The notes below the pieces were generated by a model, which had not been told where the DNA came from, did no database searches, and saw only the letters and a list, made by a program, of their open reading frames with translations. Positions 11,100 to 64,000 of a stretch of 64,000 bases of DNA are shown one piece after another; position 1 is the first letter of the stretch, and every line of letters begins with the position of its first letter. This DNA comes from Mycobacterium parmense. Lineage in GTDB: Bacteria > Actinomycetota > Actinomycetes > Mycobacteriales > Mycobacteriaceae. The stretch spans positions 5,146,001-5,210,000 of the forward strand of contig NZ_AP022614.1 in assembly GCF_010730575.1 (NCBI RefSeq). The letters run 5' to 3'. The translations under genes were made by a program, and so were the position numbers.

Positions 11100-11142
11100 C
11101 CCAGCCGGCACCGACGATCAGAACGGTCGATTGATCGGTCAC
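11100..11142 (-). pseudogene. 5' stump of a flavin monooxygenase gene
   Basis: A GTG at 11142 overlaps the stop of the ferritin-like gene (GTGA) and opens VTDQSTVLIVGAGW, the start of a Rossmann FAD-binding motif. At the other end of the window the paralogous ferritin-like gene is followed in the same way by MSDTTSVLIIGAGFAG. After about 14 codons the similarity stops at roughly 11100, and the frame ends at 11053. So only the first codons of the monooxygenase survive; the rest was removed or displaced at this junction, next to the ISL3 remnant. Confidence 0.75.
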
Positions 11143-12062
11143 TTGGAAACCGGTTCGTATGTCATGTCCCCAGCCCAGGAGGGCAGTTTGCCGAACACCT
11201 GGACGGGGAAATGGTCGACAAGGGTACCTAGCCCCTGGGAAAAGAAATGGAAAGGTTGAGCGCGGTTGATAGTCGCAGACATGTGCGTCCGAAGGATGTG
11301 ATAAGCGGGAATTCGGCGGGTGAACTCGCTTCGATCGCCGATATTCGAGTAGCGTGTGACCGCGTTGTATAGCTTCTCCTCCGAGAGGCCCCACGCAGTG
11401 AGGTTAGCCATCATCCTGGTGAGCAGCGGTATATACATTAGGGAGCCGAGGAGAATTCTCGGATCAATAATGGACCCCACCGTCTCGATCACGTGCACCC
11501 GCACCGGGCTGGCGCCGAGGTCATTGAGAACTTGGAAACCCACTGCAAGATGGCGAGATTCGTCACTATTGACCTTACTGAAGACCTCGCCGCACAACGG
11601 GTCTGCCACCTCGTCTAGAAGGAACTTCAGCAACGCGCCGTCGAGGGCGCATTCCAACGCCGGGATCGCAGAGCTCATCACCGTCAACGGGAGCGCATCG
11701 CTATAGTGGTCGATCCACTCGATCCCCAGCCGAATATTCTTATTCGGCACAGGTGTCTCTCCTGGCTCGAGCATTCCCCAGCGATGCATGAGGGCAAGTT
11801 CGGCATTAGCGTGCCGCTGCTCCTCGGCGTGGAAGTAGTGGTAGATCTCTCTTAACGCCTCGAACGGCGCCTTAGGCGCCATCGCCTCGAAAGCACGCGC
11901 TCCGACATGCTCGATCCACACCACATCTGACATGAATTGTTTGAGGTGGGGCCGTTGCTCGTCGGTAATCAACTCCGCGCCTGGGGCTTCCCAATCGATG
12001 TCGGCAAGCGCCCACTGTCGGTCTTTAATCGTTTGCAGCATATCGCTGTATTCGAACGCCAT
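11139..12062 (-). CDS. Ferritin-like diiron protein (copy 1)
   Basis: A 307-residue protein of the ferritin-like fold. Likely metal-binding motifs are E..H-type: YFHAEEQRHAN (about residue 78) and VNSDESRHLAVGF (about 165), with further acidic residues in IEHVGARAFEAM. It is roughly 80 percent identical by eye to the protein at 63032-63955, with the same length. The exact reaction is unknown; by fold it could be a diiron oxygenase or desaturase. In the intact copy it sits between an SDR and a flavin monooxygenase; here the SDR upstream is degenerate and the monooxygenase downstream is a stump. This gene has stayed open while both neighbours decayed, which suggests recent decay or retained function. 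Confidence 0.8.
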   Translation of the reverse strand: MAFEYSDMLQTIKDRQWALADIDWEAPGAELITDEQRPHLKQFMSDVVWIEHVGARAFEAMAPKAPFEALREIYHYFHAEEQRHANAELALMHRWGMLEPGETPVPNKNIRLGIEWIDHYSDALPLTVMSSAIPALECALDGALLKFLLDEVADPLCGEVFSKVNSDESRHLAVGFQVLNDLGASPVRVHVIETVGSIIDPRILLGSLMYIPLLTRMMANLTAWGLSEEKLYNAVTRYSNIGDRSEFTRRIPAYHILRTHMSATINRAQPFHFFSQGLGTLVDHFPVQVFGKLPSWAGDMTYEPVSK

Positions 12063-12084
12063 TTCCCTACTCCGATCTGGTTCT

Positions 12085-12390
12085 TCAAATCGCCCGGTGG
12101 CTATTTACCGCGCGACCCACTCGATGACACCAAGCCCACCGGTATAGCTCCTGGGCGCCATTCTCTCGGCCTGCCATCACAGGTAATGTCCGAACCTTGA
12201 CCACCAGCTTGGACGACAAGTCCAACGGTCTCCTTAGCCCGTCCCGGATCGATATCGGCGCAGACACCCGCGCACCCCGACGAGCAAGCTCAACGCCAAA
12301 GCCGCGGCCAATGCCGCTGCCAGCTCTCGTGACTACAGCGACAGCACCATGAGTGAGCACATCTGAGCCGCCGAATGGCACCAGCCTCAT
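12085..12390 (-). pseudogene. SDR gene remnant with internal deletion
   Basis: From the ATG at 12390 the minus strand reads MRLVPFGGSD, then VTRAGSGIGRGFGVELARRG, which matches the start of the intact short-chain dehydrogenase at 62177 (MRLLPFGN, ITGAGSGIGRAFAVELARRG). The TGxxxGIG cofactor motif is altered to TRAGSGIG. After about 75 codons the similarity fades, and roughly 200 codons, including the NNAG and YxxxK regions, are missing before the ferritin-like gene begins. An apparent ORF runs through, extended upstream to 12522 and downstream to 12085, but it lacks the catalytic core. Confidence 0.8.
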
Positions 12391-13290
12391 CGGCGACCGC
12401 ACGCGCGGGAGCCAGCAGGATCCGCAACCACAAACTGGTGGCACTGGCCCTAAGTGTGGGCGCATGACACCAGTTTTGTGCCGCTCCGGGCGCCTTGTCA
12501 AGACGCCGCCTGGACTCAGCAAATGCGTGGGTAGACCCGCTCGTCGCGTCAGCTAAGAATGCGCGCGTGCGGCGCACCTGATCAGCCAAGGATAACGCGC
12601 TGGATAGGCCCAGCTGGTGGTACTGAAGGTGAGTCAACGCAAGGTGGTGCTGAGGCGATCGTAACCGCTACGTGGGGACGGACAGGGCCGGCAATGGCCG
12701 GAATCTCGACCAGTTGTGCGCCATCACCGGCTGGCGTCGCAATCACGTGCGTAACGCACTCAAGGACACGCTGCGCCCGAAGGTCGTCACGAAAAGACGG
12801 CCGCAGCCGCCAAAGAATGGGCCGAAGTCCTTGCGGTGCTGACCTTTGCTGGGAATTGTAGGGCATGCTGGCGGCAGACGACTGCCGCCTTATGCTGGGC
12901 GGGTTAGACGGGTATGGGGGGCTGGGGCCTCCGCTCACATGTGAACGTGGGTTGCCGTCAGAAAGTTGGTCCTGGTCGGTAGAGCCACAGTTGTGGGAGG
13001 CCCAAGTGGTAGTTCAGCGGACGAGCCATTCTGACCTGGCGCTCGCCCTCAGGAGATGAAAATTATGCAGTGGTCGCCTGTCGACGCCGTCTAACAACTG
13101 TGGTCCTACGAGGCCGTGCATCGAGCCGGGCGTCGGATGCCGCTGTTGGGCCCTTCACTGTTGCCGCTAGTTGAGCACGAGGATCAGAATCGTTGTCCCC
13201 ATGCGTTATCCGCGGGCGGCCGCACCTTGAGATGAACAGGTGTGAGTGTGCAGTGAGGAGATGATGGCGCGCGGATTCCCCGTTTCGCCG
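12391..13290. other. Gene-poor stretch with decayed sequence
   Basis: No intact gene is seen between the SDR remnant and the IS3 fragment. The only recognisable piece is a possible transposase scrap at about 12680-12840. The ORFs present on both strands are short, have no recognisable motifs and lack convincing Shine-Dalgarno sequences. The stretch looks like eroded insertion-sequence and intergenic DNA. Confidence 0.5.
12676..12842 (+). pseudogene. Possible DDE-transposase scrap
   Basis: The plus strand reads NLDQLCAITGWRRNHVRNAL followed by a basic stretch (RPKVVTKRRPQPPKNGPKSL) and a stop. This resembles the N-terminal DNA-binding part of actinobacterial integrase-core transposases, which have a CAVTGWHRDHARKAL-like motif. 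Only about 55 codons remain. The resemblance was judged from memory, so the family is tentative. Confidence 0.4.
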
Positions 13291-13291
13291 C

Positions 13292-13471
13292 GGCCCGCTG
13301 AACACCCTGTCCGACGTCGAACACGTCACCGCCGACTATGTCGCCTGGTACAACCAGCAGCGGCTCATGCACCGCCTCGGACGAGTCCCACGCGCCGAAG
13401 CCGAAGCCCAGTACTATTCCCAACACGTGACCGACCAACCGGCCGGCTCACAGAACCCCGAGGGTGCATAG
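13292..13471 (+). pseudogene. IS3-family transposase OrfB, C-terminal fragment
   Basis: The plus strand encodes LSDVEHVTADYVAWYNQQRL and then AEAEAQYYSQHVTDQPAG before a TAG at 13469-13471. This is the C-terminal end of an IS3 integrase-type transposase, covering the last catalytic region and tail. The upstream part is missing. It could be the other end of the same element type as the fragment at 9470-9645, but it lies on the opposite strand. Confidence 0.7.
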
Positions 13472-13805
13472 GATGGTTCACTTCGGCCGCACTGCTTGAA
13501 CACAGCGGCTGGAGCGTGCCTCGAGGACGCGACGAGCGGGATAGTGTACAAATTACTGATCGCTGATGCCCCCAACCTCGGCTCCGGCGACATCGGTGCC
13601 CGCGCCCCTGCCAAGCGAGCTAGGAGCGGGCGATATCGTAATGAAAATGACTTTCAATAGGCTCGTGGTGGCGTGGCTGCGCGACGGCCCGAACCTGTTG
13701 CGGCGGGTACAAGCCCTTAAATGGACAGGCTTTTGAAAAGTTGGCGATACCAGCGGTACCGTATCAGTAGCTTTTCTGATGTGAACTTTCGGTAGGAGGC
13801 TGGCG
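13472..13805. other. Upstream region of the AurF-like gene
   Basis: About 330 bases without a gene. The right end holds a strong Shine-Dalgarno (TAGGAGG at about 13793-13799) for the AurF-like gene. No other feature was recognised. Confidence 0.5.
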
Positions 13806-14834
13806 ATGGCCCAGAAGATCGCTCGGACGAGGTTGGTGCGGCGTTGGCGCCGCAACATGGACGTGCTGGACGACGCCGAGTATGCCGACGTGCTGCGCGT
13901 CCTGTCTGAGGGCTCAGTGCGACGCAATTTCAACCCATACATCGACATCGACTGGACCGCACCTGAGTACGCGGTAGTCGACAACGACCCCCGCTGGAAG
14001 TTGCCGGCGACTGACCCGCTGGGCCGGCACCCGTGGTATCAGGCGCAGTCGGAGGAACGCCAAATCAGGATCGGCATGTGGCGTCAGGCCAATGTGGCCA
14101 AGGTGGGGCTGCACTTCGAGTCGGTCCTCATCCGCGGCCTGATGGGGTACGCGTTCTGGGTGCCGAACGGGTCCCCGGAGTACCGGTACTGCCTGCACGA
14201 GGCGGTCGAAGAGTGCAACCACACCATGATGTTTCAGGAGATGGTGAACCACATCGGCGCCGACGTGCCTGGGATGCGGCGGCAGCTGAAGTGGCTTTCG
14301 CCGCTGATCCCGCTGGTCGCTAGCCCTCTGCCGATCCCGTTCTGGTTCGGCATCCTCGCCGGTGAGGAACCCATCGACCACACTCAGAAGAACGTGTTAC
14401 GTGAGGGCAAGGAACTGCACCCGATCATGGAGCGGGTGATGTCCATCCACGTGGCCGAAGAGGCTCGGCACATCTCGTTTGCTCACGAGTATCTGCGTAA
14501 GCGTGTGCCGCACTTACCGCGGCGTAAGCGGTTTTGGCTGTCGTTATACGTGCCGGTGATTATGCGGGTGGCATGCTCGGCGATCGTGGTCCCGCCGAAG
14601 GCCTTCTGGCAGGAATTCGACATCCCGCGCGAGGTCCGCAAGCAGGTGTTCTTCGGGTCCCTGGAGTCGCGCAAGGCGCTGCGTGACATGTTCGGTGACG
14701 TGCGGATGCTGTGCTACGACACCGGGCTGATGAACCCGATCGCGCGAATGGTGTGGCGGATCTGCAAGATCAACGGCAAGCCGTCGCGTTATCGCTGCGA
14801 GCCGCAGCGCCAGCACCTGGTCGCGGTCGCCTAG
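13806..14834 (+). CDS. AurF-like diiron oxygenase
   Basis: A 342-residue protein resembling the AurF family of diiron N-oxygenases (PF11583 type). The metal-ligand pattern is visible in order: a Glu in HFESVLIRG (about residue 102), EAVEECNHTMMFQEM (about 135-149), a Glu in PIMERVMSIH, and VAEEARHISFAHEY (about 219-232). AurF itself oxidises an aryl amine; the mycobacterial members have no assigned substrate to my knowledge, so the role here is open. The start ATG is preceded by a strong AGGAGG site. It stands alone between IS scraps, on the opposite strand to its neighbours, and is the only intact gene between 12.4 and 15 kb. Confidence 0.8.
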   Translation: MAQKIARTRLVRRWRRNMDVLDDAEYADVLRVLSEGSVRRNFNPYIDIDWTAPEYAVVDNDPRWKLPATDPLGRHPWYQAQSEERQIRIGMWRQANVAKVGLHFESVLIRGLMGYAFWVPNGSPEYRYCLHEAVEECNHTMMFQEMVNHIGADVPGMRRQLKWLSPLIPLVASPLPIPFWFGILAGEEPIDHTQKNVLREGKELHPIMERVMSIHVAEEARHISFAHEYLRKRVPHLPRRKRFWLSLYVPVIMRVACSAIVVPPKAFWQEFDIPREVRKQVFFGSLESRKALRDMFGDVRMLCYDTGLMNPIARMVWRICKINGKPSRYRCEPQRQHLVAVA

Positions 14835-14841
14835 CGTTGTG

Positions 14842-14945
14842 AGTCACTAATTTGGAGCAGTAGTTAGCTGATGCTGCCAGGATTTGGTCGGCGGTTCTGA
14901 TCCAGACGTAGGGTCGAGGATTGTCGTTCCAGATGAATCGTCCTG
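14842..14945 (-). pseudogene. IS630-type transposase C-terminal scrap
   Basis: The minus strand reads FIWNDNPRPYVWIRTADQIL and then AASANYC. This resembles the C-terminal end of IS630-family transposases, in which a PFVWTKTADEIL-like motif follows the last catalytic residue. Only about 35 codons are recognisable and no start or catalytic region is present. It lies just after the AurF-like gene, on the other strand. Confidence 0.55.
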
Positions 14946-15046
14946 CAAATCCCGGAGGCTCCTGACCTTGGTAACGAGGATGCAGGTATGCCAACGTTGT
15001 GGCTCCACCAGCAAATCATTTCGCCAGTCGTCAGGGTTGGCTCTTA

Positions 15047-15910
15047 CTACCTGGGCAGGCCGAGGCGTTCGGCGAGTCGACGCCCCGCACCGTAGCGCCC
15101 GGTGCGATAGAACGACGCCATGATGTCCTCGTAGCGAGGGCCGAGGATTCGGGGAATGGCATCGAAAACTCTTGCGTCAGGACCGATCAGCACCCGCGGC
15201 TTATTCTTCTTGACCCCACGCAGTATCGCCCTCGAGGCTGATTCGGGGCTGGTGAACGCGATCCTATGGAAAAGGCGGCTAAGCGTTTCGGGGTCCGAGC
15301 CGTCGGGCAGCCCTCGGGCGTGACCGGCGATGTTGGTCTTCACCCCGCCCGGGTGAACGCAGGTCACACCTACCGGATGCCTGGCGGCCCGGAGTTCTTG
15401 GCGTAGGGCCTCGGTGAAGCCGCGGACGGCGAATTTGGCGGCATTGTAGGCGCTTTGTGACGGAATCCCGACGAACCCGAAAACCGATGACACATTGACG
15501 ATGTGGCCATCGCCGGACGCGATCAGGTGCGGCATGAATGCCTTGGTGCCATGGGCCACCCCCCAAAAGTTGATGCCCATCAGCCACTCGAAGTCGTCCC
15601 AATCCATGTCGGCCACGTCGGCCGAGAGTGCCACACCCGCGTTGTTGAAAACAAGGTTCACTCTGCCGAATTCACTGACGACATTCTTTGCGTGTTCGTA
15701 AACTGCCGGCCGTTGGGCTACATCGAGCTCGAACGGCACCGCCTTAGCTCCGACCTTCTCGCATCGACCAGCGGTATCGGCCAGCGCGCTCGTATCGATG
15801 TCCGACAGCGCCAGCTGCGCCCCCTGTTCAGCCAAGCTCAACGCCAGGTTACGGCCGATACCTGAGCCAGCGCCGGTGATTACTGCCACTTTATTGGTGA
15901 AGTCCTTCAT
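15047..15910 (-). CDS. Short-chain dehydrogenase/reductase
   Basis: A 287-residue SDR. The cofactor motif TGAGSGIG is at residues 12-19, NNAG at about 91, a catalytic Ser in VNVSSVFG at about 141, and YNAAK (the YxxxK pair) at about 157. An aspartate in SDID after the second strand suggests NAD preference by family rules. Such enzymes oxidise or reduce alcohols and ketones; the substrate is unknown. The frame is open much further upstream, to 16354, but the ATG at 15910 gives the standard SDR N-terminus and the extra part is not protein-like. It is divergent from the PF10118 gene at 16456, with a 545-base region between. Confidence 0.9.
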   Translation of the reverse strand: MKDFTNKVAVITGAGSGIGRNLALSLAEQGAQLALSDIDTSALADTAGRCEKVGAKAVPFELDVAQRPAVYEHAKNVVSEFGRVNLVFNNAGVALSADVADMDWDDFEWLMGINFWGVAHGTKAFMPHLIASGDGHIVNVSSVFGFVGIPSQSAYNAAKFAVRGFTEALRQELRAARHPVGVTCVHPGGVKTNIAGHARGLPDGSDPETLSRLFHRIAFTSPESASRAILRGVKKNKPRVLIGPDARVFDAIPRILGPRYEDIMASFYRTGRYGAGRRLAERLGLPR

Positions 15911-16455
15911 AAACTGATCGCCTCCGAATGTATTTGGACTGGCCGACGGCCGGTTCCGCAGATCGTTGACACCGCCCCCATCCTCTTCTGTAACAACCAG
16001 AGTCCACTGCACTACACGGCATGGCGCTGGGTGCCAATCCCGTCCGGGATGTTCACCGTCGCCACAGGCGCCCGTAGAGCAGCTAGAACCGCTAGGTATC
16101 CCGGAACATGAAACGCGAGCCTCCCTGTTACGCGCCGTACGAGTGGTTGCTGAGAGCCTCGATGCCGGTATCCAGCTTGAACGCTCCCTGCTTCCGAGTA
16201 AGCAATTTTCCGAACAAACAGTATACGTAACGACTAGTACTATGTACTGCGGTTTGGGCCGATTGTCAAAACAGTTTAAAGGCAGGAGTCGTGGAGGTGA
16301 CAGCGTACGCGGCGGTGTGATGCGGCTCTCAAACGCAGCGCTTCTACACGTCATTGCGGAGTCTTGCGCGCCCTGTCGATCCGCAGTAACGTCTCACTAA
16401 ACACCTAGTACTGTCGGTATCGGAAACCGGGTGTTCGAGGAAGGGGTATCTTGTT
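15911..16455. promoter_or_regulatory. Divergent intergenic region
   Basis: A 545-base gap between divergent genes probably holds promoters for both. The 7-mer TAGTACT occurs twice, near 16235-16241 and 16407-16413. The first lies inside a small palindrome, AGTAC-TAT-GTACT, at 16236-16248. AT-rich stretches surround them. These could be regulator-binding sites for the PF10118 operon. No transcription factor gene is adjacent, so the assignment is inference only. Confidence 0.4.
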
Positions 16456-17346
16456 ATGACGAGCGACCACATAGTGCAAGAGGCAGCGACCACTGCAAAT
16501 GCGGTGAGTGAGGGGTCTCGGTATCCGACGACCCGGCGGATACGTTTCCCGTTTGCCCAGGGCAGCAAGTATTTCGTTAACGACGACATCATCTTCAGCC
16601 ACTTTCTGGCGAACTTGTCGGGGTCGTTCCCGCCGGGGGAGGAGTTGTTCATTCGGTCGGTGCGCCGGTTTGCCGATGAGATCGCCGACCCTGGGTTGAA
16701 GAAGCGGGTGGCCGGGTTTATCGGTCAGGAATCGGTGCATGGCCAGCAGCATCGGGCGCTCAATGACAAGCTCGTTGACATGGGGTATCCGATTGGGTGG
16801 TGGGATTCCGAAAAGTTTGTTGATTGGGTGAAACGCATCGAGGAGGTGCTGCCGGCCCGGATTCCGCTGGCGGTGACAGCAGCCGCAGAACACTTCACCG
16901 CCGTACTTGCTGAGCGGCTGCTCGGCGATGAGGAGATCCAGGCGATCCCGGGTGATGCGGAGGTGTGGAACCTGCTGAACTGGCATGCGCTGGAGGAACT
17001 TGAGCACAAGTCGGTTGCCTTTGATGTATTCCGCTCGGTGCGGGGTACCGAGCGGGTGCGTCGACGTGTGATGGCGGTAATGATCCCCCTTCTGCTCCTC
17101 CTCATAACCGCCGTACTGGCTTGTTCGGTGGCGCGGGATCCCGAAGCGCGCCGTCAGCCAGTGCGACTGGTGCGTGAGACCTATCGGCTCTACCGCGGCC
17201 CCATTCTTCGTGGCGTGATCCCAGAGCTCAGGCAATACCTGCGACCGGGATTTCATCCCGACGACATCGACACCAACGCGTTGCTGGAGCAATGGCAGGA
17301 GGAACTCTTCGGCACCGAGGGGGCCCTGGTCGGCTACCTGAAGTGA
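16456..17346 (+). CDS. PF10118-type metal-dependent protein (tandem copy a)
   Basis: A 296-residue protein of the family annotated as predicted metal-dependent hydrolase (PF10118), whose pattern looks ferritin-like. Candidate metal ligands are in FPPGEELFIRSVRRFAD (about 57-73), FIGQESVHGQQHRALN (about 84-99), a Glu/His pair in AAAEHFTAVLAER (about 137-149), and WHALEELEHKSVAFDV (about 173-188). A hydrophobic segment (MIPLLLLLITAVLACSVA, about 205-222) may anchor it to the membrane. It is followed after 33 bases by a close paralog, then by a flavin monooxygenase and an SDR on the same strand, which suggests one transcript. The reaction is unknown. Confidence 0.8.
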   Translation: MTSDHIVQEAATTANAVSEGSRYPTTRRIRFPFAQGSKYFVNDDIIFSHFLANLSGSFPPGEELFIRSVRRFADEIADPGLKKRVAGFIGQESVHGQQHRALNDKLVDMGYPIGWWDSEKFVDWVKRIEEVLPARIPLAVTAAAEHFTAVLAERLLGDEEIQAIPGDAEVWNLLNWHALEELEHKSVAFDVFRSVRGTERVRRRVMAVMIPLLLLLITAVLACSVARDPEARRQPVRLVRETYRLYRGPILRGVIPELRQYLRPGFHPDDIDTNALLEQWQEELFGTEGALVGYLK

Positions 17347-17379
17347 CCGACCACCACACTCAAAACAAAGGAGAGTGTC

Positions 17380-18285
17380 ATGGTAGCTAGTCACGCAGCA
17401 GTTGCGAACACAGGAATGGCACCGGAAAGACCAGCAAAAAAGGCGTATCCGAAAACTCGCCGGATTCGGTTCTCATTCGGTGATCCGCAGCCGATGCAGC
17501 GTCACTTCGTTGAGGGCGACATCGTGCTTAGCCACCTTGTGGCGTTGCTGTCGGGCATATTTCCGCCCGGCGAGGAATTATTTATCAGGTCGGTCCGGCG
17601 CTTCGCCGATCGGGTGACCGATCCGGAGTTAAAGAAGCGGGTGGCCGGATTCATTGGTCAGGAGTCGGTGCATGGGCAGGAACACCGCCGGCTCAACGAG
17701 CAATTGGTGGACAGGGGCTATCCCCTGGTCAGTTTTTTCATGTTCGATGCCAATAGTCGGCGGCAGCGGCTGTTGGTGCGGATCGAAAACCTGCTGCCCG
17801 CGCGGGTACCCCTGGCGGTCACTGCAGCGGCTGAACACTTCACTGCCACGCTGGCTGAGCGAATGCTAGGCGAGGAGTTACAGAAGATCCCTGGTGATCC
17901 CGAGGTGCGAAACCTGCTCAACTGGCACGCGGTGGAAGAGCTGGAGCACAAATCGGTTGCCTTCGACGTTTACCGGTCGGTCCGCGGGCCGGAGTGGCTT
18001 CGCATCGGTGTGATGGGGGTTTTATACGTTCTGGCCATCCCGGTGATAACGATCGGCGTGTTGCTGTCCATCGCGACGGACCCTAAAGGGTGGCATCCGA
18101 TCAAAGTGACGCGTCAAGCGCGTGCTGTGTTTCGAGGCCCGCTGCTCAAGGGTTTGATGGCCGACCTGCGCATCTACATGAAACCCGGCTTTCATCCCGA
18201 CGATGTCGACACCCGTGCGCTGCTGAACAAGTGGCAGCAGGAACTGTTCGGGACCCATGGCACCCTTGTGGGTTACCAAAAGTAG
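17380..18285 (+). CDS. PF10118-type metal-dependent protein (tandem copy b)
   Basis: A 301-residue paralog of the preceding gene, with the same motif order: FPPGEELFIRSVRRFADRV, FIGQESVHGQEHRRLNEQL, AAAEHFTATLAERML and WHAVEELEHKSVAFDVYRSV. A hydrophobic segment (VLYVLAIPVITIGVLLSIA) lies at about residues 208-226. A clear AAAGGAG site precedes the ATG. The conservation of both copies suggests they differ in substrate or work as a pair, perhaps as a heterodimer. Its end overlaps the longest open frame of the monooxygenase gene that follows. A third paralog is at 59697-60566 on the other strand. Confidence 0.8.
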   Translation: MVASHAAVANTGMAPERPAKKAYPKTRRIRFSFGDPQPMQRHFVEGDIVLSHLVALLSGIFPPGEELFIRSVRRFADRVTDPELKKRVAGFIGQESVHGQEHRRLNEQLVDRGYPLVSFFMFDANSRRQRLLVRIENLLPARVPLAVTAAAEHFTATLAERMLGEELQKIPGDPEVRNLLNWHAVEELEHKSVAFDVYRSVRGPEWLRIGVMGVLYVLAIPVITIGVLLSIATDPKGWHPIKVTRQARAVFRGPLLKGLMADLRIYMKPGFHPDDVDTRALLNKWQQELFGTHGTLVGYQK

Positions 18286-18307
18286 CAGCAAGTCCGGCGA
18301 GCCCGAA

Positions 18308-50506: not shown

Positions 50507-50507
50507 T

Positions 50508-55435: not shown

Positions 55436-55469
55436 GAGCCCGTTGCGGAGAAATTCGCTCGGCGGGTTC
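55436..55469 (+). ncRNA. Group II intron domain V
   Basis: A 34-base hairpin. The lower stem pairs GAGCCCG with CGGGTTC (one G-U), the upper stem pairs GCGGA with TTCGC (one G-U) around a GAAA tetraloop. The AGC triad lies in the first strand. Size and layout match domain V, the catalytic core of group II introns. Confidence 0.88.
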
Positions 55470-55533
55470 GGAGGGCGGGCCGGGGAAACGGATCGGTAGA
55501 AATGCCGACACCGCGCCCCGGTCCGACCCCTAC

Positions 55534-55930: not shown

Positions 55931-56133
55931 ACCCCAGACTTCGATCGCGACGTTGGCATCAGCTCGAAGCGTGGCGGTCGCCAAGCCGATGTCGCGAGTT
56001 CCACCGGATGATGACAGTGCCATGGTGAGAAGTAGCGGAACCCGGACAGCCAAACCGGCGAAGTGCATTGTTGTCGGCGTGGTCCTCGATAGCCCCGACG
56101 GAACACTTGTGCAAGACGCATATCCTGCTCACC

Positions 56134-56763: not shown

Positions 56764-56850
56764 CACTAAGGATTTTATGTTCAAATGTTGACTCTGAAGG
56801 AATAATTGTAAACACTTGGAGTGGGGCCGCACGAACCTTAGGAGATTCTC

Positions 56851-58152
56851 ATGATTGCCAGCACGACGTCCGCACTGAAAACGTCGGCGGAGCGGCGTTC
56901 AGCACGTCCATATGATTCTGCCGACTTGTCCTCGACTGCATTTTGGGCCGGCACCGCCGCCGACCGGGAGAAGACATACGCCGAACTGCGCAAACGTGCT
57001 CCCATCAGCTGGCACCCGCGAGTCGAGCACACCATGATCGACGACGGGAACGACCGGGGCTTTTGGGCTGTGGTTACGCATCCGTTGCTTGTCGAGGCGA
57101 CCCGGCGACACGACGATTTCCTGTCAGGTCAGGGCATTGTCATGGAGTCGATCCCGCAGGAATTGCTCGACACCGCTCAAGGCTTCATTGCGATGGATCC
57201 GCCGCGTCATACCAAGATTCGACGATTGCTGGCATCCGCATTCACGCCGAAGCAGATGCGACTGATCCACCATCAGATCGAGGCCAACGCGAAGCGCGTC
57301 GTCGACGACCTGGCTCCACAGGGCAAGGCCGACTTCGTCGACGAATGCGCGGCGTTGCTGCCGATGCACAACATCTTCGACATGATGGGCGTGCCGGACT
57401 CGATGCGCCGCGACATCGCGTGGGAATCACGGTATGCCGGTGGGTGGAGCGACCCCGAGGTGATGGGCGACGACCCAGTCATACCTCGCCTTTTCCAAGC
57501 GATGGGATTCCTAGGCGACGGCGCCCGCGAAATCATCGCTGCACGTCGCCGGCAGCCCGAAGACGACCTCATGACGAACCTCGTTCAGGCTGAAGTGGAC
57601 GGTGAAAAACTCACCGAAGATGAGATCGTCTCGTTTTTCATACTTCTCACGATCGCTGGGAACGACACCACGCGCCAAAGCACCAGTCATGCGATGAAAG
57701 CCTTGACCGACTTTCCCGATCAACGAGCGTGGCTGATGGAGGATTTCGACGGACGAATCAAAGGAGCGGTCGAAGAGTTCGTCCGGTGGGCCACCCCGAT
57801 CATGACCTTCCGCCGAACGGCAGCTCGCGACTGCGACCTGGGCGGACAACAGATCACCGAAGGTGACAAGGTCGTACTTTTTTACAGCTCGGCCAACTGG
57901 GACACCACAGTGTTCACCAACCCGGAAAAGTTCGATTTGTCACGGGACCCCAACCCGCACGTGAGCTTCGGAGGTGGAGGTATCCACCACTGCTTGGGCA
58001 ATCAGCTGGCGCGGCAGCAACTCGCCGCGCTCTTCCGGGAATTGCTGCACCGCCTGCCTGATATTGAAGTCTGCGGGCCACCCAGCTATACCGTTAGCAC
58101 TTTCTTCCACGGGGTGAATCATCTTCCCGTCCGCTTCACCCCGACTACGTGA
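56851..58152 (+). CDS. Cytochrome P450
   Basis: A 433-residue P450. It has AGNDTT in the I-helix (Asn and Asp where most have His and Glu), the ExxR pair in EEFVRWATP, and the heme loop FGGGGIHHCLGNQLARQQ with the ligand Cys at about residue 380. The long N-terminus (~30 residues before AFWAGTAADREKTY) is usual for mycobacterial sterol- and fatty-acid-type P450s. An AGGAG site precedes the ATG. The stop overlaps the GTG upstream of the ferredoxin. It is probably reduced by that ferredoxin. Confidence 0.93.
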   Translation: MIASTTSALKTSAERRSARPYDSADLSSTAFWAGTAADREKTYAELRKRAPISWHPRVEHTMIDDGNDRGFWAVVTHPLLVEATRRHDDFLSGQGIVMESIPQELLDTAQGFIAMDPPRHTKIRRLLASAFTPKQMRLIHHQIEANAKRVVDDLAPQGKADFVDECAALLPMHNIFDMMGVPDSMRRDIAWESRYAGGWSDPEVMGDDPVIPRLFQAMGFLGDGAREIIAARRRQPEDDLMTNLVQAEVDGEKLTEDEIVSFFILLTIAGNDTTRQSTSHAMKALTDFPDQRAWLMEDFDGRIKGAVEEFVRWATPIMTFRRTAARDCDLGGQQITEGDKVVLFYSSANWDTTVFTNPEKFDLSRDPNPHVSFGGGGIHHCLGNQLARQQLAALFRELLHRLPDIEVCGPPSYTVSTFFHGVNHLPVRFTPTT

Positions 58153-58163
58153 GGCAGCGTGGC

Positions 58164-58355
58164 ATGAAAATCACAGTCGACCGCGATCGATGCTCGTCAA
58201 TCGGGATGTGTGAAGGCCTGGCTCCCGACTTCTTCGAGGTCAGTAACGATGGGAAACTCCACATCCTGAATCCTGGGCCACCCGAATGTCACAGGGCACT
58301 GATCGAAGATGCCGTGGCGAGTTGCCCCACAGGCGCGCTCGCGTTGCACGATTGA
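58164..58355 (+). CDS. 3Fe-4S ferredoxin
   Basis: A 63-residue ferredoxin of the P450-associated type. Cluster cysteines are in DRCSSIGMCEGL (C-x5-C) and SCPTGAL; the position between, where a fourth Cys could be, is not Cys, so a 3Fe-4S cluster is expected. The ATG at 58164 is preferred; a GTG at 58149 overlaps the P450 stop. It would pass electrons to the P450 upstream. Confidence 0.9.
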   Translation: MKITVDRDRCSSIGMCEGLAPDFFEVSNDGKLHILNPGPPECHRALIEDAVASCPTGALALHD

Positions 58356-58487
58356 CAGACTGGCAGCAGCGAGATCCGGTGCAGCTGTTCGGCACTGGCT
58401 TCCGGCCGGTCCACGATGACTGCTCCTCGTCCAACGGGCTCGCCGACATCGCTCAGGAGCACAACACAACGCAATGGAGCCGCAGTA

Positions 58488-59504
58488 GTGAGTACCTTTG
58501 GACTCTCTGTCCTAGCCCCTGACCTTGCCGCGATGAAGGTCACCGCCACCGCGGCCGACCAGGCCGGGTTCGACGCGGTGTGGGCATCGGAGTTCTATAC
58601 CCGGTCGGGATCCATCTCGATGGCGGCAATGGCCACCTCGACTGACAGGTGTCGCATCGGGTCGTCGATTCTCTACGGCGTCGGACGCAGCCCGCTGGTC
58701 TTGGCGACCGAGGCGCGCGATCTCGACGAACTGTCCGGCGGTCGCATCGTGCTCGGCATCGGCAACGGCACCAAACGGATGATGAGCAACTGGCACAGCG
58801 TCGCCGATACCAGCGCCCCCGCCCTGCGCGTCGAGGAACTCGTACCCCTTATTCGGCGCATCTGGAACCTGCACGAGGGACCAGTCCGCCACGAAGGCCG
58901 CTTCTACCAGATGAATCTCATCCCCAGCGGCCCGGTAGACCCGCCTGCGCGCGATATTCCGATCATCACCGCCGCGGTGCGCCCGCGGATGTGCGAAGCC
59001 GCCGGCCGGGTCGCTGACGGGCTGGCCGGGCATCCGCTCTTCACGACCGCCTACGTGGAGGAAGTCGTGCGGCCCGCGGTGGCCAAGGGCGCCGCACGCA
59101 CCGGGCGCGATCCCGACGACGTCGAGATTGTGTCAATGGTCATGTGCTCCATCCACGACGACCCGGAAATCGCCCGTCGCGAGGTCGCGCAACAGATCGC
59201 GTTCTACGCATCAGTCAGAACCTACCAACCGCTGCTCGACTTCTGCGGATTCGCCAAACAGGGTGCCGTTATCCGAGAAGCCTTCGCACGCGGTGACTTT
59301 GCGGCCATGTTCGACGCGGTGACGGACGACATGATCGACGTGATGGGCGTCGCTGGCACCGCCAGCGAGGTGCGCGCCGGGCTGCGCCGCTACGAGGGGG
59401 TACTCGACCACATCATGCTCTACCCGCCGTCGGTGGGTATCGCACCTGAGCGGGTCGGCCAAAACCTCGGTGAGATGATCAAGCACTGCGCCCCCGGCCA
59501 GTAA
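58488..59504 (+). CDS. LLM-class flavin-dependent oxidoreductase
   Basis: A 338-residue luciferase-like monooxygenase/reductase (F420 or FMN type). Typical segments are FGLSVLAPDLAAMKVTATAA, AGFDAVWASEFY, CRIGSSILYGVGRSPLVLAT, ELSGGRIVLGIGNG and IPIITAAVRPRMCEAAGRVA. The GTG at 58488 gives the usual N-terminus directly at the first strand; longer starts are not protein-like. It follows the ferredoxin by 132 bases on the same strand, so it likely belongs to the P450 pathway. The cofactor cannot be decided. Confidence 0.87.
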   Translation: MSTFGLSVLAPDLAAMKVTATAADQAGFDAVWASEFYTRSGSISMAAMATSTDRCRIGSSILYGVGRSPLVLATEARDLDELSGGRIVLGIGNGTKRMMSNWHSVADTSAPALRVEELVPLIRRIWNLHEGPVRHEGRFYQMNLIPSGPVDPPARDIPIITAAVRPRMCEAAGRVADGLAGHPLFTTAYVEEVVRPAVAKGAARTGRDPDDVEIVSMVMCSIHDDPEIARREVAQQIAFYASVRTYQPLLDFCGFAKQGAVIREAFARGDFAAMFDAVTDDMIDVMGVAGTASEVRAGLRRYEGVLDHIMLYPPSVGIAPERVGQNLGEMIKHCAPGQ

Positions 59505-59696
59505 CATCCCGGTTCATGTAGGTGCGCCAGCGTCTGTGTCGACGACAACCCGCGGCGGTGAATGAGTCTCCCGTCTAATTCGAAATGACCGGTTCATCGA
59601 CGGTGTGCTCCTGCCGGTACCGTAGGGATCGCCTTCGACGACGAGTTCGTAAGCCACCTAGTGCCAGTGCTTCTCTGCTCGCGCTCACCGTTGATG

Positions 59697-60566
59697 CTAG
59701 ACGCGGCTCCCGATTCGCTGGGCGCCATCGGAGTCGAAGAGTTCTTTGGCCCAGCGTTCGAGGACTTCGGTGCTGTCCCAGTCGTCGGGGTGGAAGCCGG
59801 CGCGGGTGTAGGAACGGAAGCGCTGCACCGCGTCCGGGCTGAACAGTGGGGAACGACGGAAGGCTCGAAGGCTGCGCAGTAAGCGCAGTGGGTTGTAGGC
59901 TGCGCGGTCACCCGCCAGAGAGCGAGTGGTCTGGATGACCAACTCGGTGAACAAGATGACTGTGGCAATCCGCATTCCCCAGACCCTGGTGCGTTCGGTT
60001 CCACCGACCGTCTCGAAGACGTCGAAAGCGACGGCCTTGTGCTCGGATTCTTCTAAAGCGTGCCAGAGCAGAATCGGCCGGACCTCGGTGTCGCCGATCA
60101 GCTCTTGTGCCTCGTCGCTGGTCAGAATGATTTCGGCGAACGTCGCCGTGTAGTGCTCAAGGGCAGCCGTCACGGCCAGGCGCATCTTCGGAGAGAATCG
60201 CTTCTCGAGCCGGTCAACCAACTTCTTGATGTGCCGATCGATCCCGTCGGTCGGATAGCCCATCGCTTGGAGCCGCTCGTTAAGCAGCCGATGCTGGTGC
60301 CGGTGGGTGGCCTCCTGCGCGATGAATCCCTTGACCGCCTCTTGGAGGTCGGGGTCGCTGACCTGGTCACGGTACTGGCGCACCGATCGGATGAAGAAGT
60401 CTTCGCCCTCGGGGAACGTTGCCGACAAGGTAGAGACAAAGTGGCTCATCACCAAGTCGCCGTCGACGAAGTGCTGGCGACTGGTCCCAGCAGGCATTGC
60501 GAAACGGACACGGCGAGCCTTTGGCAGCACCCTCTTTGCTGGCCGTGTGGGCGACTCACTGGTCAT
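59697..60566 (-). CDS. PF10118-type metal-dependent protein (third copy)
   Basis: A 289-residue paralog of the proteins at 16456 and 17380. Motifs in order: FPEGEDFFIRSVRQYRDQV, FIAQEATHRHQHRLLNERL, AALEHYTATFAEIIL and WHALEESEHKAVAFDVFETV. The hydrophobic segment (MRIATVILFTELVIQTT) is present. It has diverged from the tandem pair but keeps every candidate metal ligand. It is divergent from the TetR gene at 60643 with a perfect 8-base palindrome between. In mirror order it corresponds to the left-hand pair. Confidence 0.82.
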   Translation of the reverse strand: MTSESPTRPAKRVLPKARRVRFAMPAGTSRQHFVDGDLVMSHFVSTLSATFPEGEDFFIRSVRQYRDQVSDPDLQEAVKGFIAQEATHRHQHRLLNERLQAMGYPTDGIDRHIKKLVDRLEKRFSPKMRLAVTAALEHYTATFAEIILTSDEAQELIGDTEVRPILLWHALEESEHKAVAFDVFETVGGTERTRVWGMRIATVILFTELVIQTTRSLAGDRAAYNPLRLLRSLRAFRRSPLFSPDAVQRFRSYTRAGFHPDDWDSTEVLERWAKELFDSDGAQRIGSRV

Positions 60567-60598
60567 GTGCTACTCCCATCTCCAAGCGGACCTCAATA

Positions 60599-60622
60599 AT
60601 CTGACTTTATACCTAGTCAGAT
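60599..60622. promoter_or_regulatory. Perfect palindrome between PF10118 and TetR genes
   Basis: ATCTGACT (60599-60606) and AGTCAGAT (60615-60622) are exact inverted repeats with an eight-base spacer, TTATACCT. It lies 20 bases before the TetR start and 32 bases from the PF10118 start. It is the likely TetR operator, controlling both genes. Confidence 0.7.
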
Positions 60623-60642
60623 TTAGATGACAAACTGTGTCT

Positions 60643-61347
60643 ATGCGTTCAGTCCGGGTGTATCGCGGAGTGTCTGCAGAGCAGCGCCATCAGCACCGGC
60701 GTACACGTCTCATCGACGCCGCTATCGAGCTGATCGGTACCCGAGGCGTGGCCGCCACCACCGTGACTGCCGTCTGCGCCGAGTCACGTGTCACCTCGCG
60801 TTACTTCTACCAGCATTTCTCCGACCGCGACGCGCTCTTGCGGGCCGTCTACCAGCAGCTCTATGCCACCTTCCAAGACGTAATAGTCCAAGCGATCCCA
60901 GACGCCGGCGCGCCACCCGACGTGTTGGCGTATGCCCCCATCCGCGCACTGGTCAACATGATCGAAGACGATCCTCGGCTGGCCCGCATTTTGTTCGTTG
61001 AATCCGCAACGGAGCCACTCCTTCGCGAGTTGCGGAGCCAATTGATGGCCGGTTTCGCCGACCTCGTGCTGCGCGAGGCCAGACTTCACCTGGATATCGC
61101 CGACTCTGCGGTGGGCGTCGCGCATCTGGCTTCAACCCTCGGTGTCGGAGGACTCTTCGAGGTTCTGCGCCGCTGGCTGGACGGCGAACTGGACTTCAGT
61201 ACTGATGAACTCGTCCAACACTGCGCAGGTTTCCTGGGCAGCCTCGGCACCTACGTGCTGCTGCAGAACATAGGCGAGGCGCCGGTTCCTGAATCCGGGG
61301 CATCGGCAAACGCTCTATCGGCTCGCGGCCACGCCCGGCGATGCTGA
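60643..61347 (+). CDS. TetR-family regulator
   Basis: A 234-residue TetR regulator. VAATTVTAVCAESRVTSRYF holds the helix-turn-helix (about 35-54), followed by YQHFSDRDALLRAVYQQ. The ATG at 60643 is preferred to a GTG two codons earlier. It is divergent from the PF10118 gene across a perfect palindrome, so it probably represses that gene and itself. It converges on another TetR gene. Confidence 0.9.
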   Translation: MRSVRVYRGVSAEQRHQHRRTRLIDAAIELIGTRGVAATTVTAVCAESRVTSRYFYQHFSDRDALLRAVYQQLYATFQDVIVQAIPDAGAPPDVLAYAPIRALVNMIEDDPRLARILFVESATEPLLRELRSQLMAGFADLVLREARLHLDIADSAVGVAHLASTLGVGGLFEVLRRWLDGELDFSTDELVQHCAGFLGSLGTYVLLQNIGEAPVPESGASANALSARGHARRC

Positions 61348-61373
61348 GTGCGTGTCCGGTTTGACGCCCACGA

Positions 61374-62042
61374 TCAGGACGGTAGCGTCCCGGGCACGTC
61401 ATCGACGCTGAGCGCGTGCACCAGATAACGTTCAGCTAGGGTTTCGGCGAGCCGACTGGTGTGTTCGACGATCTCCTCCTGACTTACGTCGAGCAAGCCG
61501 GCATGCCAGGCGGTGATCAGCTCGACGAAGCCCCCAACCGCCACCAAGGTGTCCATGCGGAGCGCGGTTTCATCGGCATCCGGTCTCAGATGGGGCTTGC
61601 TCGCCGCGACCACGAGGTGCGTCGCCTCTTGCAGGGCAACAGCGCGCCGGTCTTGCAGCGGTGAGCTGCCCACGTGCTGGGTCAGCAAGATCTTTGCCCT
61701 GCCGGGATCTTGTGTGATGCGGTCGACCACCATAGAGATGGTCATGCGAATAGTCTCGAGGGGCGGCTGCCCGACGCGTTCTGCGAGGGTCGCGGAAACC
61801 TCACCGAGCATCTCGTTCCGTACCCCGTCCCAGGCGGCAACCAGCAACTCGTCGCGGGTCTTGAAGTCTTCATAGAAGTAGCGGTCGTTCAGGCTGGTCC
61901 GGGAGCAAACGCCCCTCATGGTGACTGCGGCCCAACCGCTTTCGCTCCAGATCTCGGTCGCGGCATCGATCAGACGCTGCCGACGTTCCGCGCGGCGTTC
62001 CGCGCCGGTACGCCCGCCCCATCGTTTCGCCTTCGTCCGCAC
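61374..62042 (-). CDS. TetR-family regulator
   Basis: A 222-residue TetR regulator. The DNA-binding part is AAVTMRGVCSRTSLNDRYFY (helix-turn-helix) with EDFKTRDELLVAAWDG after it. The GTG at 62042 gives MRTKAKRWGGRTGAERRAE as a basic lead; an in-frame TTG at 62063 is possible. It is divergent from the SDR / ferritin-like / monooxygenase operon starting at 62177 and may control it. No strong palindrome was seen in the 134-base gap. Confidence 0.88.
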   Translation of the reverse strand: MRTKAKRWGGRTGAERRAERRQRLIDAATEIWSESGWAAVTMRGVCSRTSLNDRYFYEDFKTRDELLVAAWDGVRNEMLGEVSATLAERVGQPPLETIRMTISMVVDRITQDPGRAKILLTQHVGSSPLQDRRAVALQEATHLVVAASKPHLRPDADETALRMDTLVAVGGFVELITAWHAGLLDVSQEEIVEHTSRLAETLAERYLVHALSVDDVPGTLPS

Positions 62043-62176
62043 ATTTCCATCTTGACAAAGCAACGTAGGTCACACCAAACTGACGGCATGTGCCCACAAT
62101 GGTGGCTGGTGCCACCAGTTGCTTTCGAGGCAGCGACGGAATCAACCGTCAGATCGCAGCAACGGCGGATACTCCG

Positions 62177-63013
62177 ATGAGGCTGCTGCCGTTTGGGAAT
62201 CCCCCCCGCCGGAGTGACCGTGCCGACGCGGTGATCACCGGTGCAGGCAGCGGCATTGGCCGCGCATTTGCCGTCGAGCTGGCGCGCCGGGGCGGCCGTG
62301 TGGTGTGCGCCGACATCGACGGCATTCGCGCCAAGGAGACAGCGGACCTGATCTCCAAGCTGGGCGGTCATGGCATCGGCGTTGTTTGCGACGTCTCAGA
62401 CGAGCATCAGGTCCGGGATCTTGCCGATTCGGCCGAGAAGTGGTTCGGCGGCGCTCCCGGACTGGTGATCAACAATGCCGGAATTGGCGCTGGAGGCAAC
62501 GTCGTCGGTGCGACATCCACGAGCGATTGGTCCGCGACGTTGTCGGTCAATCTGTGGGGAGTCATCCACGGCTGCGAAGTCTTTGTCCCGCGGCTCCGGG
62601 AACGTGGATTCGGAGGGCTCATCAACGTCGCGTCGGCGGCAAGCTTCGGTGCGGCCCCCCGCATGGCCGCCTACAACGTGAGCAAAGCGGGCGTACTCGC
62701 GCTGTCCGAAACCTTGGCAGCCGAGCTCAGCGGAACCGGCGTCACGGTGACCGTCCTATGCCCCACCTTCGTCAAAACAAATATCGTCGACAATCCACGC
62801 ATCGAGGAATCGGCGGCCACGCTAGCCGCCAACTTGATGAAGTGGACCGGCGTATCACCAGAGTCGGTAGCACGAACCACCCTGGATGCGCACGACCGCG
62901 GCCAGCTATACGTCCTGCCGCAACTCGACGCCAAAATCCTCTGGCAGCTCAAGAGAACCATGCCGGGTACCTTCACCCACGCGATGGGACTCATCCAGCG
63001 AATAACGCGTTGA
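62177..63013 (+). CDS. Short-chain dehydrogenase/reductase
   Basis: A 278-residue SDR. Motifs: TGAGSGIG (about 21-28), ADID after the second strand (NAD-type acid), NNAG (about 99), Ser in NVASAASF (about 148) and YNVSK (about 161-165), then CPTFVKTNIVD. The ATG at 62177 matches the start of the decayed copy at 12390 (MRLLPFG versus MRLVPFG), which supports it over the longer open frame. It is followed after 18 bases by the ferritin-like gene, with which it forms an operon. Confidence 0.9.
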   Translation: MRLLPFGNPPRRSDRADAVITGAGSGIGRAFAVELARRGGRVVCADIDGIRAKETADLISKLGGHGIGVVCDVSDEHQVRDLADSAEKWFGGAPGLVINNAGIGAGGNVVGATSTSDWSATLSVNLWGVIHGCEVFVPRLRERGFGGLINVASAASFGAAPRMAAYNVSKAGVLALSETLAAELSGTGVTVTVLCPTFVKTNIVDNPRIEESAATLAANLMKWTGVSPESVARTTLDAHDRGQLYVLPQLDAKILWQLKRTMPGTFTHAMGLIQRITR

Positions 63014-63031
63014 CACAACCTAGGAGGAGAC

Positions 63032-63955
63032 ATGGCTTTCGAATACGGCGATATGCTGCAGACGATTAAAGACCGCCAGTGGGCGCTGGCCGACATCGAC
63101 TGGGACGCACCGGGTGCCGAGTTGATCACCGACGAACAGCGCCCCAGCCTGAAACAGTTCATGTCAGACGTGGTATGGATCGAGCATGTCGGTGCCCGCG
63201 CTTTCGCGGCCATGGCCCCCAAGGCGCCGTTCGACGCGTTGGGTGAGATTTACAGGTATTTCCACGCCGAAGAGCAGCGGCACGCCAACGTGGAGCTCGC
63301 TCTCATGCATCGCTGGGGGATGCTCGAGGAGGGCGAGACTCCGGTGCCGAACAAGAACATCCGGCTGGTCATCGAATGGCTGGACCGATACGCCGAAGCA
63401 CTTCCGTTGACGGTGATCGGTGCTGCCATACCGGCTTTAGAAACCGCTCTGGACGGAGCACTGTTGAAGTTTTTGGTGGACGAGGTGTCAGATCCCGTGT
63501 GCGGCGAAGTTTTCGCCAAGGTCAACAGCGACGAGTCTCGCCACCTGGCGGTGGGTTTTCAGGTGCTCAACGACCTGGGCGCCAGCCCAATGAGGATCCA
63601 TGCGATTCAGACGGTGGGAGCTCTTATCGACCCGAGGGTACTTACCGGTGCGTTGCTTTACATCCCGCTGCTGACCCGGATGCTGATAAACCTGAACGCC
63701 TGGGGCCTGTCCGAGGAAAGGCTGTACAACGCAGTCACCCGCTACTCGAACGTCGGCGATCGCAGCGAGCACACCCGCCGTGTTCCCCCCTATCACATCC
63801 TCAAGGCCCATATGTCTGCCACGATCAAGCACTCCCAACCGCTGCACTTCATCTCGCAGCGCCTCGGTAGGGTGATCGACCACTTCCCCACGCAAGTGCT
63901 CGGCAAGACGCCGTCATGGACTGATGAGCTGACCTATGAACCGGTGGCCAGATGA
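63032..63955 (+). CDS. Ferritin-like diiron protein (copy 2)
   Basis: A 307-residue ferritin-like protein, about 80 percent identical by eye to the one at 11139-12062. YFHAEEQRHANVELALMHRW and VNSDESRHLAVGFQVL hold the likely metal ligands. A strong AGGAGGAG site precedes the ATG. It stands between an SDR and a flavin monooxygenase (start overlapping, ATGA), so it probably acts with them in one oxidation route. The exact reaction is unknown. It is a complete gene in an apparently intact operon. Confidence 0.82.
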   Translation: MAFEYGDMLQTIKDRQWALADIDWDAPGAELITDEQRPSLKQFMSDVVWIEHVGARAFAAMAPKAPFDALGEIYRYFHAEEQRHANVELALMHRWGMLEEGETPVPNKNIRLVIEWLDRYAEALPLTVIGAAIPALETALDGALLKFLVDEVSDPVCGEVFAKVNSDESRHLAVGFQVLNDLGASPMRIHAIQTVGALIDPRVLTGALLYIPLLTRMLINLNAWGLSEERLYNAVTRYSNVGDRSEHTRRVPPYHILKAHMSATIKHSQPLHFISQRLGRVIDHFPTQVLGKTPSWTDELTYEPVAR

Positions 63956-64000
63956 GCGACACGACCAGTGTTCTGATCATCGGAGCCGGCTTTGCCGGAC
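63952..64000 (+). CDS. Flavin monooxygenase, 5' end only
   Basis: The ATG at 63952 overlaps the ferritin-like stop and opens MSDTTSVLIIGAGFAG, a Rossmann FAD-binding motif (GxGxxG). The window ends after 16 codons. By comparison with the truncated stump at 11100-11142, this is the gene normally linked to the ferritin-like protein. A Baeyer-Villiger or similar FAD monooxygenase is likely. Confidence 0.78.
   Translation, partial: MSDTTSVLIIGAGFAG

What the first reader, a model, noticed from the sequence alone, without database searches (positions are those of the whole stretch)
11100..64000. Two diverged copies of one gene island lie in mirror-image order
Three related blocks appear in reverse order and opposite orientation. 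Left, outside to inside: monooxygenase stump / ferritin-like / SDR on minus (11.1-12.4 kb), PF10118 pair on plus (16.5-18.3 kb), hydrolase-thioesterase-TetR on minus with thiolase on plus (25.8-28.5 kb). Right, inside to outside: truncated thiolase on minus with TetR-thioesterase-hydrolase on plus (50.5-53.2 kb), PF10118 on minus (59.7 kb), SDR / ferritin-like / monooxygenase on plus (62.2 kb on). Identity is about 90 percent for the inner block and about 80 percent for the outer one. This looks like an ancient head-to-head duplication, later filled with different genes and IS elements, with opposite edges decayed in each copy.
Basis: partly seen in the sequence, partly recalled or inferred. 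Interest (0 to 1): 0.75.

Follow-up and report, generated by a model that had tools for sequence, protein, structure and literature searches.

The report
Mirrored gene clusters in mobile element
The mirror-image genes are two related gene clusters of mixed age carried inside a giant, probably transferable piece of DNA, about 316,000 bases long, that sits at one tRNA gene and is almost letter-for-letter the same in several different Mycobacterium species.

Summary
The inverted pairs are real: C (hydrolase-thioesterase-TetR-thiolase) 25.8-28.5 vs 53.2-50.5 kb, 82.7% nt; A (SDR remnant, AurF-like, monooxygenase stump) 11.1-12.4 vs 64.0-62.2 kb, 77% nt. The third pair is misassigned: PF10118 at 59.7 kb is only 44-45% identical (aa) to the 16.5-18.3 kb pair, whose inverted partner (B', 82% nt over 4.4 kb) lies beyond the window at +83.9-88.3 kb. 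Two shuffled versions of one cluster exist (a relative has most duplicated cargo blocks within 34 kb), but no single head-to-head duplication made them: dS is 1.32 for A, 0.54-0.60 for B/C, 0.13 for another block; A's copies have different sister species (AU p=3e-4). B's copies are sisters; C is unresolved. Nested inverted pairs are expected by chance here. The larger finding: the window is cargo of a ~316-kb putative integrative and conjugative element at tRNA-Phe(GAA), with a 50-bp att repeat, integrase, TrwC relaxase and type VII (ESX) locus. Its cargo is ~100% identical in 6 of 248 genomes searched (own included; four host lineages 84-87% alike at the right flank); two relatives show the empty site. 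Closest report: ICEMyc226; the passages I read name no tRNA-Phe site.

The parts
1..64000 (.). Whole window: internal cargo of a ~315.8-kb putative integrative and conjugative element; attL (3' end of tRNA-Phe) lies at window position -162127..-162076, attR at +153690..+153739, both outside the window
436..9469 (+). mce-type lipid uptake operon (MlaE-type permease plus six Mce/MlaD-domain proteins), cargo of the same element
11101..11142 (-). Block A left: stump of the flavin monooxygenase (about 14 codons)
11139..12062 (-). Block A left: AurF/ferritin-like protein (307 aa), 80% aa identical to the right copy; sister to the G214 copy
12176..12396 (-). Block A left: remnant of the SDR gene
13806..14834 (+). 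AurF-type N-oxygenase family protein (PF11583) between the left A and B blocks
16456..18285 (+). Block B left: tandem PF10118 pair (57% aa to each other); inverted partner at +86.4-88.3 kb, outside the window
18257..20835 (+). Block B left: flavin monooxygenase and SDR; inverted partner at +83.9-86.4 kb, outside the window
25757..28467 (-). Block C left: alpha/beta hydrolase, hotdog thioesterase, TetR (minus) and the start of the thiolase (plus)
28000..29493 (+). Block C left: full-length thiolase-like protein (acetyl-CoA acetyltransferase model NF006104)
29490..30587 (+). Zn-dependent alcohol dehydrogenase next to the thiolase; adjacent to block C also in M. colombiense and M. tusciae
50176..50598 (+). 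Copy of an element-backbone gene (94.6% aa over 111 residues to the gene at -157206..-156640) at the cut end of the thiolase: junction of the right cluster
50508..50975 (-). Block C right: truncated thiolase (156 of 497 aa)
51102..53185 (+). Block C right: TetR, thioesterase, hydrolase
56076..59504 (+). P450 and luciferase-like genes; direct repeat of the block at -24.9..-21.5 kb (86% nt)
59697..60566 (-). PF10118 protein of a different subfamily (44-45% aa to the 16.5-18.3 kb pair): not their mirror partner
62090..63955 (+). Block A right: SDR and AurF-like protein; the monooxygenase follows at 63952-65598, running past the window end

Best explanation
The mirror is a local view of a rearranged, partly duplicated oxidation/lipid gene cluster that is cargo of a giant mycobacterial integrative and conjugative element (ICE). 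A tyrosine-type integrase would recombine a 50-bp site at the 3' end of tRNA-Phe(GAA); a TrwC relaxase, an AAA_10 (VirB4-like, by my reading) ATPase and a type VII (ESX) secretion locus would move the excised circle between cells. The cargo gathered two versions of an ancestral cluster (A, B, C and further blocks) at different times, at least for A from different relatives, and IS elements and recombination eroded and inverted them. Shown: att repeats, empty site, near-identical copies in several species, unequal ages and trees of the pairs. Inferred: excision, conjugative transfer, and the order of events.
For: ICE: 50-bp repeat of the tRNA-Phe 3' end at both ends; in 5 of 5 other carriers examined the ~100% identity runs to 8-39 bp past that repeat and stops, with no mismatch in the 2,190 bases inside it in 4 of 4 of them re-checked, and unrelated DNA outside between lineages; two empty-site relatives with one att in the stretch read, alignment stopping at the tRNA end and resuming at +171.8 kb; integrase 3 kb from attL; TrwC relaxase, EccA/C/D/E, AAA_10; a 6.9-kb piece of the conjugation module ~100% in 5 of 6 carriers, own included, and module contiguous with cargo in G100; cargo 99.97% against flanks of 83-84% between G000 and G230. 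Mixed ages: dS 0.13, 0.47-0.60, 0.84, 1.07-1.32; A trees and AU tests; C-left with M. colombiense; compact cluster in G214.
Against: B copies are sisters and B, C, P450/luciferase-like and 44/98 kb share dS 0.47-0.60, so one old duplication of that subset is not excluded. G230 lacks the conjugation-module piece. The left end (-162.6 to -160.7 kb, tRNA genes included) is 95-98% alike between carriers rather than 100%. In G165 and G120 attR differs from the 50-mer by one base. No excision or transfer was observed; a coupling protein and oriT were not identified in this genome.
Confidence: 0.82

Rival explanations
1. One ancient head-to-head (inverted) duplication of a whole island, later eroded and filled with other genes.
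For: A, B and C pairs are all inverted; B copies are sisters; B and C have the same dS; C-left + M. colombiense + C-right as one clade is in the best tree of the AU set, though weakly supported (48/38).
Against: A is about twice as diverged (dS 1.32) and its copies have different sister taxa (AU p=3e-4 and 0.005); the 67-73 kb block pair is far younger (dS 0.13); other duplicated blocks are direct repeats; no common mirror axis.
Confidence: 0.12
2. The near-identical islands came by chromosomal (distributive) conjugal transfer and homologous recombination across the flanks rather than by site-specific integration.
For: Such transfer is known in mycobacteria (recalled, no call); both flanks are syntenic in G000 and G230.
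Against: Identity stops within 8-39 bp of the att repeat in 5 of 5 other carriers, right flanks are 84-87% alike between lineages, and the empty site is cut at the tRNA end in both relatives read.
Confidence: 0.08
3. The identity reflects cross-contamination or shared assembly artefacts.
For: Two draft assemblies have contigs of exactly 46,910 bp.
Against: G000 and G230 hold it in chromosome contigs of 5.95 and 6.02 Mb with their own flanks and differing insertions; the sequence outside attR is unrelated between lineages.
Confidence: 0.02

Closest known systems
ICEMyc226 of Mycolicibacterium sp. CBMA 226 (PMC7478629; 12 of 18 matching passages seen)
   Same: Large (388 kb), T4SS-type genes, relaxase, two T7SS loci and xenobiotic-degradation genes; called there the first T4SS-mediated ICE in the family.
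   Different: In the passages seen it is a single contig predicted circular, with a DDE-type integrase/transposase, and no tRNA target is named; here there is a PF00589 integrase, a tRNA-Phe att site, an empty site, and near-identical copies in several species. No sequence comparison was made.
Mycobacterial plasmids with ESX and relaxase genes, e.g. M. lentiflavum ATCC 51985 plasmid NZ_CP092424 (224.7 kb)
   Same: Backbone from relaxase through the AAA_10 ATPase to the ESX genes largely collinear, mostly 80-89% nt.
   Different: That record is a circular plasmid; of its 50-200 kb stretch no alignment longer than 700 bp falls in the A/B/C cargo (the other 75 kb was not read). It has integrase genes of its own.
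   Same: Homologues of A, C, part of B, P450/luciferase-like, the 59.7-kb PF10118, mce and the 67-73 kb block on one contig.
   Different: Most of these occur once there (a gene like that at 67-68 kb occurs twice); alignments are 65-83% nt; no match to the MMPL, 44/98 kb or recombinase pairs was listed; the contig is too short to say whether it is mobile.

Membership tests
Integrative and conjugative element (ICE) | Integrated at a specific site, bounded by direct att repeats | tested here: met
   50-bp repeat of the tRNA-Phe 3' end at both ends; empty site in G058 and G080
Integrative and conjugative element (ICE) | Own site-specific recombinase near an end | tested here: met
   PF00589 integrase at -159112..-158021, 3 kb from attL
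Integrative and conjugative element (ICE) | Relaxase | tested here: met
   TrwC domain in a 1951-aa protein
Integrative and conjugative element (ICE) | T4SS-type ATPase and coupling protein | tested here: inconclusive
   AAA_10 ATPase found (VirB4-like is my reading); a coupling-type protein was seen only as an annotated gene on the related plasmid
Integrative and conjugative element (ICE) | Excision and transfer between cells | not testable with these tools
   Only indirect: near-identical copies in four host lineages
ESX-bearing conjugation backbone | Ecc core genes with EspC/PPE/WXG100-type genes beside a relaxase and a T4SS-type ATPase | tested here: met
   EccA, EccC, EccD, EccE, EspC, PPE, WXG100 (at its cut-off) by Pfam; EccB not tested here by profile but annotated on the collinear plasmid
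Single inverted segmental duplication | All pairs equally diverged | tested here: not met
   dS 0.13 to 1.32 over 8 block pairs
Single inverted segmental duplication | The two copies are each other's closest relatives for every block | tested here: not met
   Met for B, unresolved for C, rejected for A; other blocks had no tree

The most novel reading that the evidence does not exclude
A self-transmissible ~316-kb mycobacterial ICE, moved by a combined relaxase/T4SS/type VII machinery and targeting tRNA-Phe, has recently entered at least four lineages of Mycobacterium, and acts as a collecting vessel in which homologous versions of one oxidation/lipid cluster from different species are gathered, inverted and recombined.
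Probability: 0.5. Interest if true: 0.8.

Novelty: new variant of a known kind. Interest (0 to 1): 0.66.

Why it matters
Large conjugative elements integrated in mycobacterial chromosomes look little documented: one mobilome survey says that integrated actinomycete ICEs would be unlikely to be found by its approach, which used contigs under 1 Mb (PMC8190616, passage seen). An element of this size, nearly unchanged across hosts that are 84-87% alike at its right flank, points to recent large-scale gene flow among mycobacterial species and gives an exact site, tRNA-Phe(GAA), at which to look for it. It also explains how paralogue pairs of unequal age came to lie side by side in this window.

Tried and rejected
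PF10118 at 59.7 kb as partner of the 16.5-18.3 kb pair: rejected (44-45% aa). Cargo on known plasmids: megablast of window 11-31 kb against PLSDB matched 7 records, each over at most 2% of the query (three of them name an IS110 transposase); the rest of the cargo was not searched there. Mirror as a statistical signal: with 12 duplicated blocks that I listed by hand (IS copies and the >99% MMPL copy left out), random placement gives at least two nested inverted pairs in 94% and three mutually nested in 51% of 20,000 trials. Baeyer-Villiger fingerprint (motif recalled) matched only one of three monooxygenases, so that chemistry is not claimed. Promoter/terminator scan at the thiolase junction uninformative. 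A paper with tRNA-Phe in M. cosmeticum gave only a tRNA table in the passages seen. Tree samples: before building I dropped near-identical island carriers and near-duplicate rows, and for C and B kept only rows with all genes used (A tree 25 rows; C tree 29; B tree 24; AU sets 19 and 24 rows). The loci behind the trees are the best matches of capped lists, so closer relatives may exist.

Literature searched for this element: (open-licence PMC library only; listings seen). I saw no report of it in those listings; four papers were looked into by passages.
Full report
1. The observation. Self-blastn of the window gives two inverted pairs: 25757-28467 with 53221-50508 (82.7% nt over 2716 bp) and 11103-12065 with 63991-63029 (76.8%), plus 12195-12347 with 62373-62220 (74.5%). 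I call them C and A. Protein identities are 91, 90 and 83% for hydrolase, thioesterase and TetR and 80% for the AurF-like protein. The right thiolase matches only 156 of 497 residues and ends at 50508; the left SDR is a remnant and the left monooxygenase a stump of about 14 codons. The PF10118 pairing fails: 59697-60566 is 44-45% identical (aa) to either member of the 16.5-18.3 kb pair. That pair with the monooxygenase and SDR behind it (block B, 16456-20835) has its inverted partner outside the window at +83898-88286 (81.9% nt over 4.4 kb). The order is therefore A, B, C then C', A', B'.

2. More than the window. The window is G000:C1:5146001-5210000 of a 5.95-Mb single-contig genome. In a second genome, G230, window coordinates -90314 to +153739 are matched at a mean of 99.97% over 219,615 of 244,054 bases (hits of at least 98% only), while the flanks align at 83.8% over 57,874 of 137,301 bases (left) and 83.3% over 72,511 of 190,645 (right). 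The C-left block is ~100% identical in 6 of 248 genomes of the genus, own included (in G100 it is split); A-right in 6 of 246; block B in 6 of 246, two of them partial. Among named genomes both C copies occur in six: M. helveticum, M. scrofulaceum, M. gordonae, M. nebraskense, M. parascrofulaceum and Mycobacterium sp. WUMAC-067. From contig lengths I infer that G165, G062, G120 and G100 are M. helveticum, M. scrofulaceum, M. gordonae and M. parascrofulaceum. The species of G000 and G230 were not named by any search.

3. The element. The left flank ends in a tRNA-Lys/Glu/Asp/Phe group. The last 50-52 bases of tRNA-Phe(GAA) recur at +153.7 and +161.7 kb and, with one mismatch over 47 bases, at +167.5 kb. 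With the G000 junction as query, the ~100% identity ends 8-39 bp past the first of these in 5 of 5 other carriers. The 2,190 bases inside show no mismatch in G062, G100, G165 and G120, where attR has 0, 0, 1 and 1 mismatches; for G230 the last 1.9 kb is 99.9% identical. Up to 800 bp outside are 45-52% alike between lineages, that is unrelated, and 96% between G062 and G100 (read for G000, G230, G062, G100). Two relatives, G058 and G080, have one att in the stretch read: their alignment to G000 stops at the tRNA-Phe 3' end and resumes at window +171.80 kb. From attL to attR the element is 315.8 kb. An integrase lies 3 kb inside attL. Between -141 and -90 kb lie EccA, EccC, EccD, EccE, EspC, PPE and WXG100 genes, an AAA_10 ATPase that I read as VirB4-like, and a 1951-aa TrwC relaxase. 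A 6.9-kb piece of this module is ~100% identical in G062, G100, G165 and G120 and has no match in G230 (5 of 6 genomes with own); a 2-kb relaxase piece is ~100% in 5 of 244 genomes. In G100 module and cargo are contiguous (56,956 bp at 99.99%). At the right chromosomal flank the carriers form four lineages: G000; G062 with G100 (95.1%); G165 with G230 (94.9%); G120; 83.9-87.0% between lineages. The left end (-162.6 to -160.7 kb, tRNA genes included) is 95-98% alike between carriers, not 100%, which I cannot explain. The backbone resembles the M. lentiflavum plasmid NZ_CP092424, mostly at 80-89%.

4. The paired blocks. A 34-kb contig of G214 holds homologues of A, C, part of B (second PF10118 gene and SDR), the 59.7-kb PF10118, P450/luciferase-like, the 67-73 kb block and mce, so I read the element as carrying two shuffled versions of one cluster; MMPL, 44/98 kb and recombinase pairs have no listed match there. 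The ages differ: dS 0.13 (67-73 kb block), 0.47 (P450/luciferase-like), 0.51 (44/98 kb), 0.54 (B), 0.60 (C), 0.84 (MMPL), 1.07 (70/118 kb), 1.32 (A; 95% bootstrap 1.00-2.05). In trees A-left joins G214 (100/100) and A-right joins M. tusciae, G002 and G079 (98/99); the pair as a clade is rejected (p=3e-4; p=0.005 with G214 allowed). C-left joins M. colombiense (100/100) and C-right is unresolved; {L,R} alone is rejected (p=1e-44), {L, M. colombiense, R} is not (support 48/38), and C-right with the 12 other rows tested is not rejected either (p=0.48). B-left and B-right are sisters (100/100), which speaks for a duplication of B, and perhaps of C with it. M. hippocampi itself has two C-type loci, so more than one copy is not unique to the element. 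At the cut end of the right thiolase lies a copy of a backbone gene from the element's left end (94.6% aa over 111 residues), beside a Mutator-family transposase whose protein occurs in four identical copies in the element: a sign, not proof, that the right cluster was joined through mobile DNA.

5. Function. The cargo combines an mce uptake operon, MMPL transporters, flavin monooxygenases, P450s, AurF/PF10118 proteins, SDRs, an alcohol dehydrogenase, a thiolase, thioesterase and hydrolase. The most likely role is uptake and stepwise oxidation of a hydrophobic substrate ending in CoA-dependent cleavage (inference, about 0.4); the substrate is unknown.

6. Known work. ICEMyc226 (PMC7478629, 12 of 18 matching passages) is the closest description. 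PMC8190616 (8 passages) reports one AICE-like contig and notes that integrated AICEs would be unlikely to be found by its approach; PMC11877719 (11 passages) treats plasmids. The listings of searches showed no report of this element; the library holds open-licence papers only.

Noticed in passing
window 53873-55426: Group II intron-type reverse transcriptase/maturase between the right C block and the P450 gene.
   Followed up: no
window 48338-49642: Mutator-family transposase with identical protein copies at -160769, +101725 and +148695 in the element.
   Followed up: partly
window 35956-39381 and -56344..-52913: MMPL-region copies 99.8% identical, beside a stretch (33457-35948 / -61286..-58796) that is only 83% identical: perhaps a recent copying or conversion.
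   Followed up: partly
window +153.7 to +171.8 kb (outside the window): Two further att-like repeats at +161.7 and +167.5 kb suggest smaller elements stacked at the same tRNA-Phe site.
   Followed up: partly
window -87.9..-69 kb and +103..+115 kb (outside the window): Two related sets of genes in the same order, with tyrosine-recombinase matches in both.
   Followed up: no
L233 (NZ_CP092424): The M. lentiflavum plasmid is typed non-mobilizable in PLSDB although its annotation includes a mobF relaxase and conjugation genes.
   Followed up: no
L263 (G007:C270): Another genome carries fragments 92-97% identical to parts of the cargo (35.9-39.3, 15.0-17.3, -14.1..-11.5 kb): perhaps a related element.
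   Followed up: no
G062:C159, G100:C120, G007:C184: A second relaxase, 81% identical to the element's, in two carriers and in G007.
   Followed up: no
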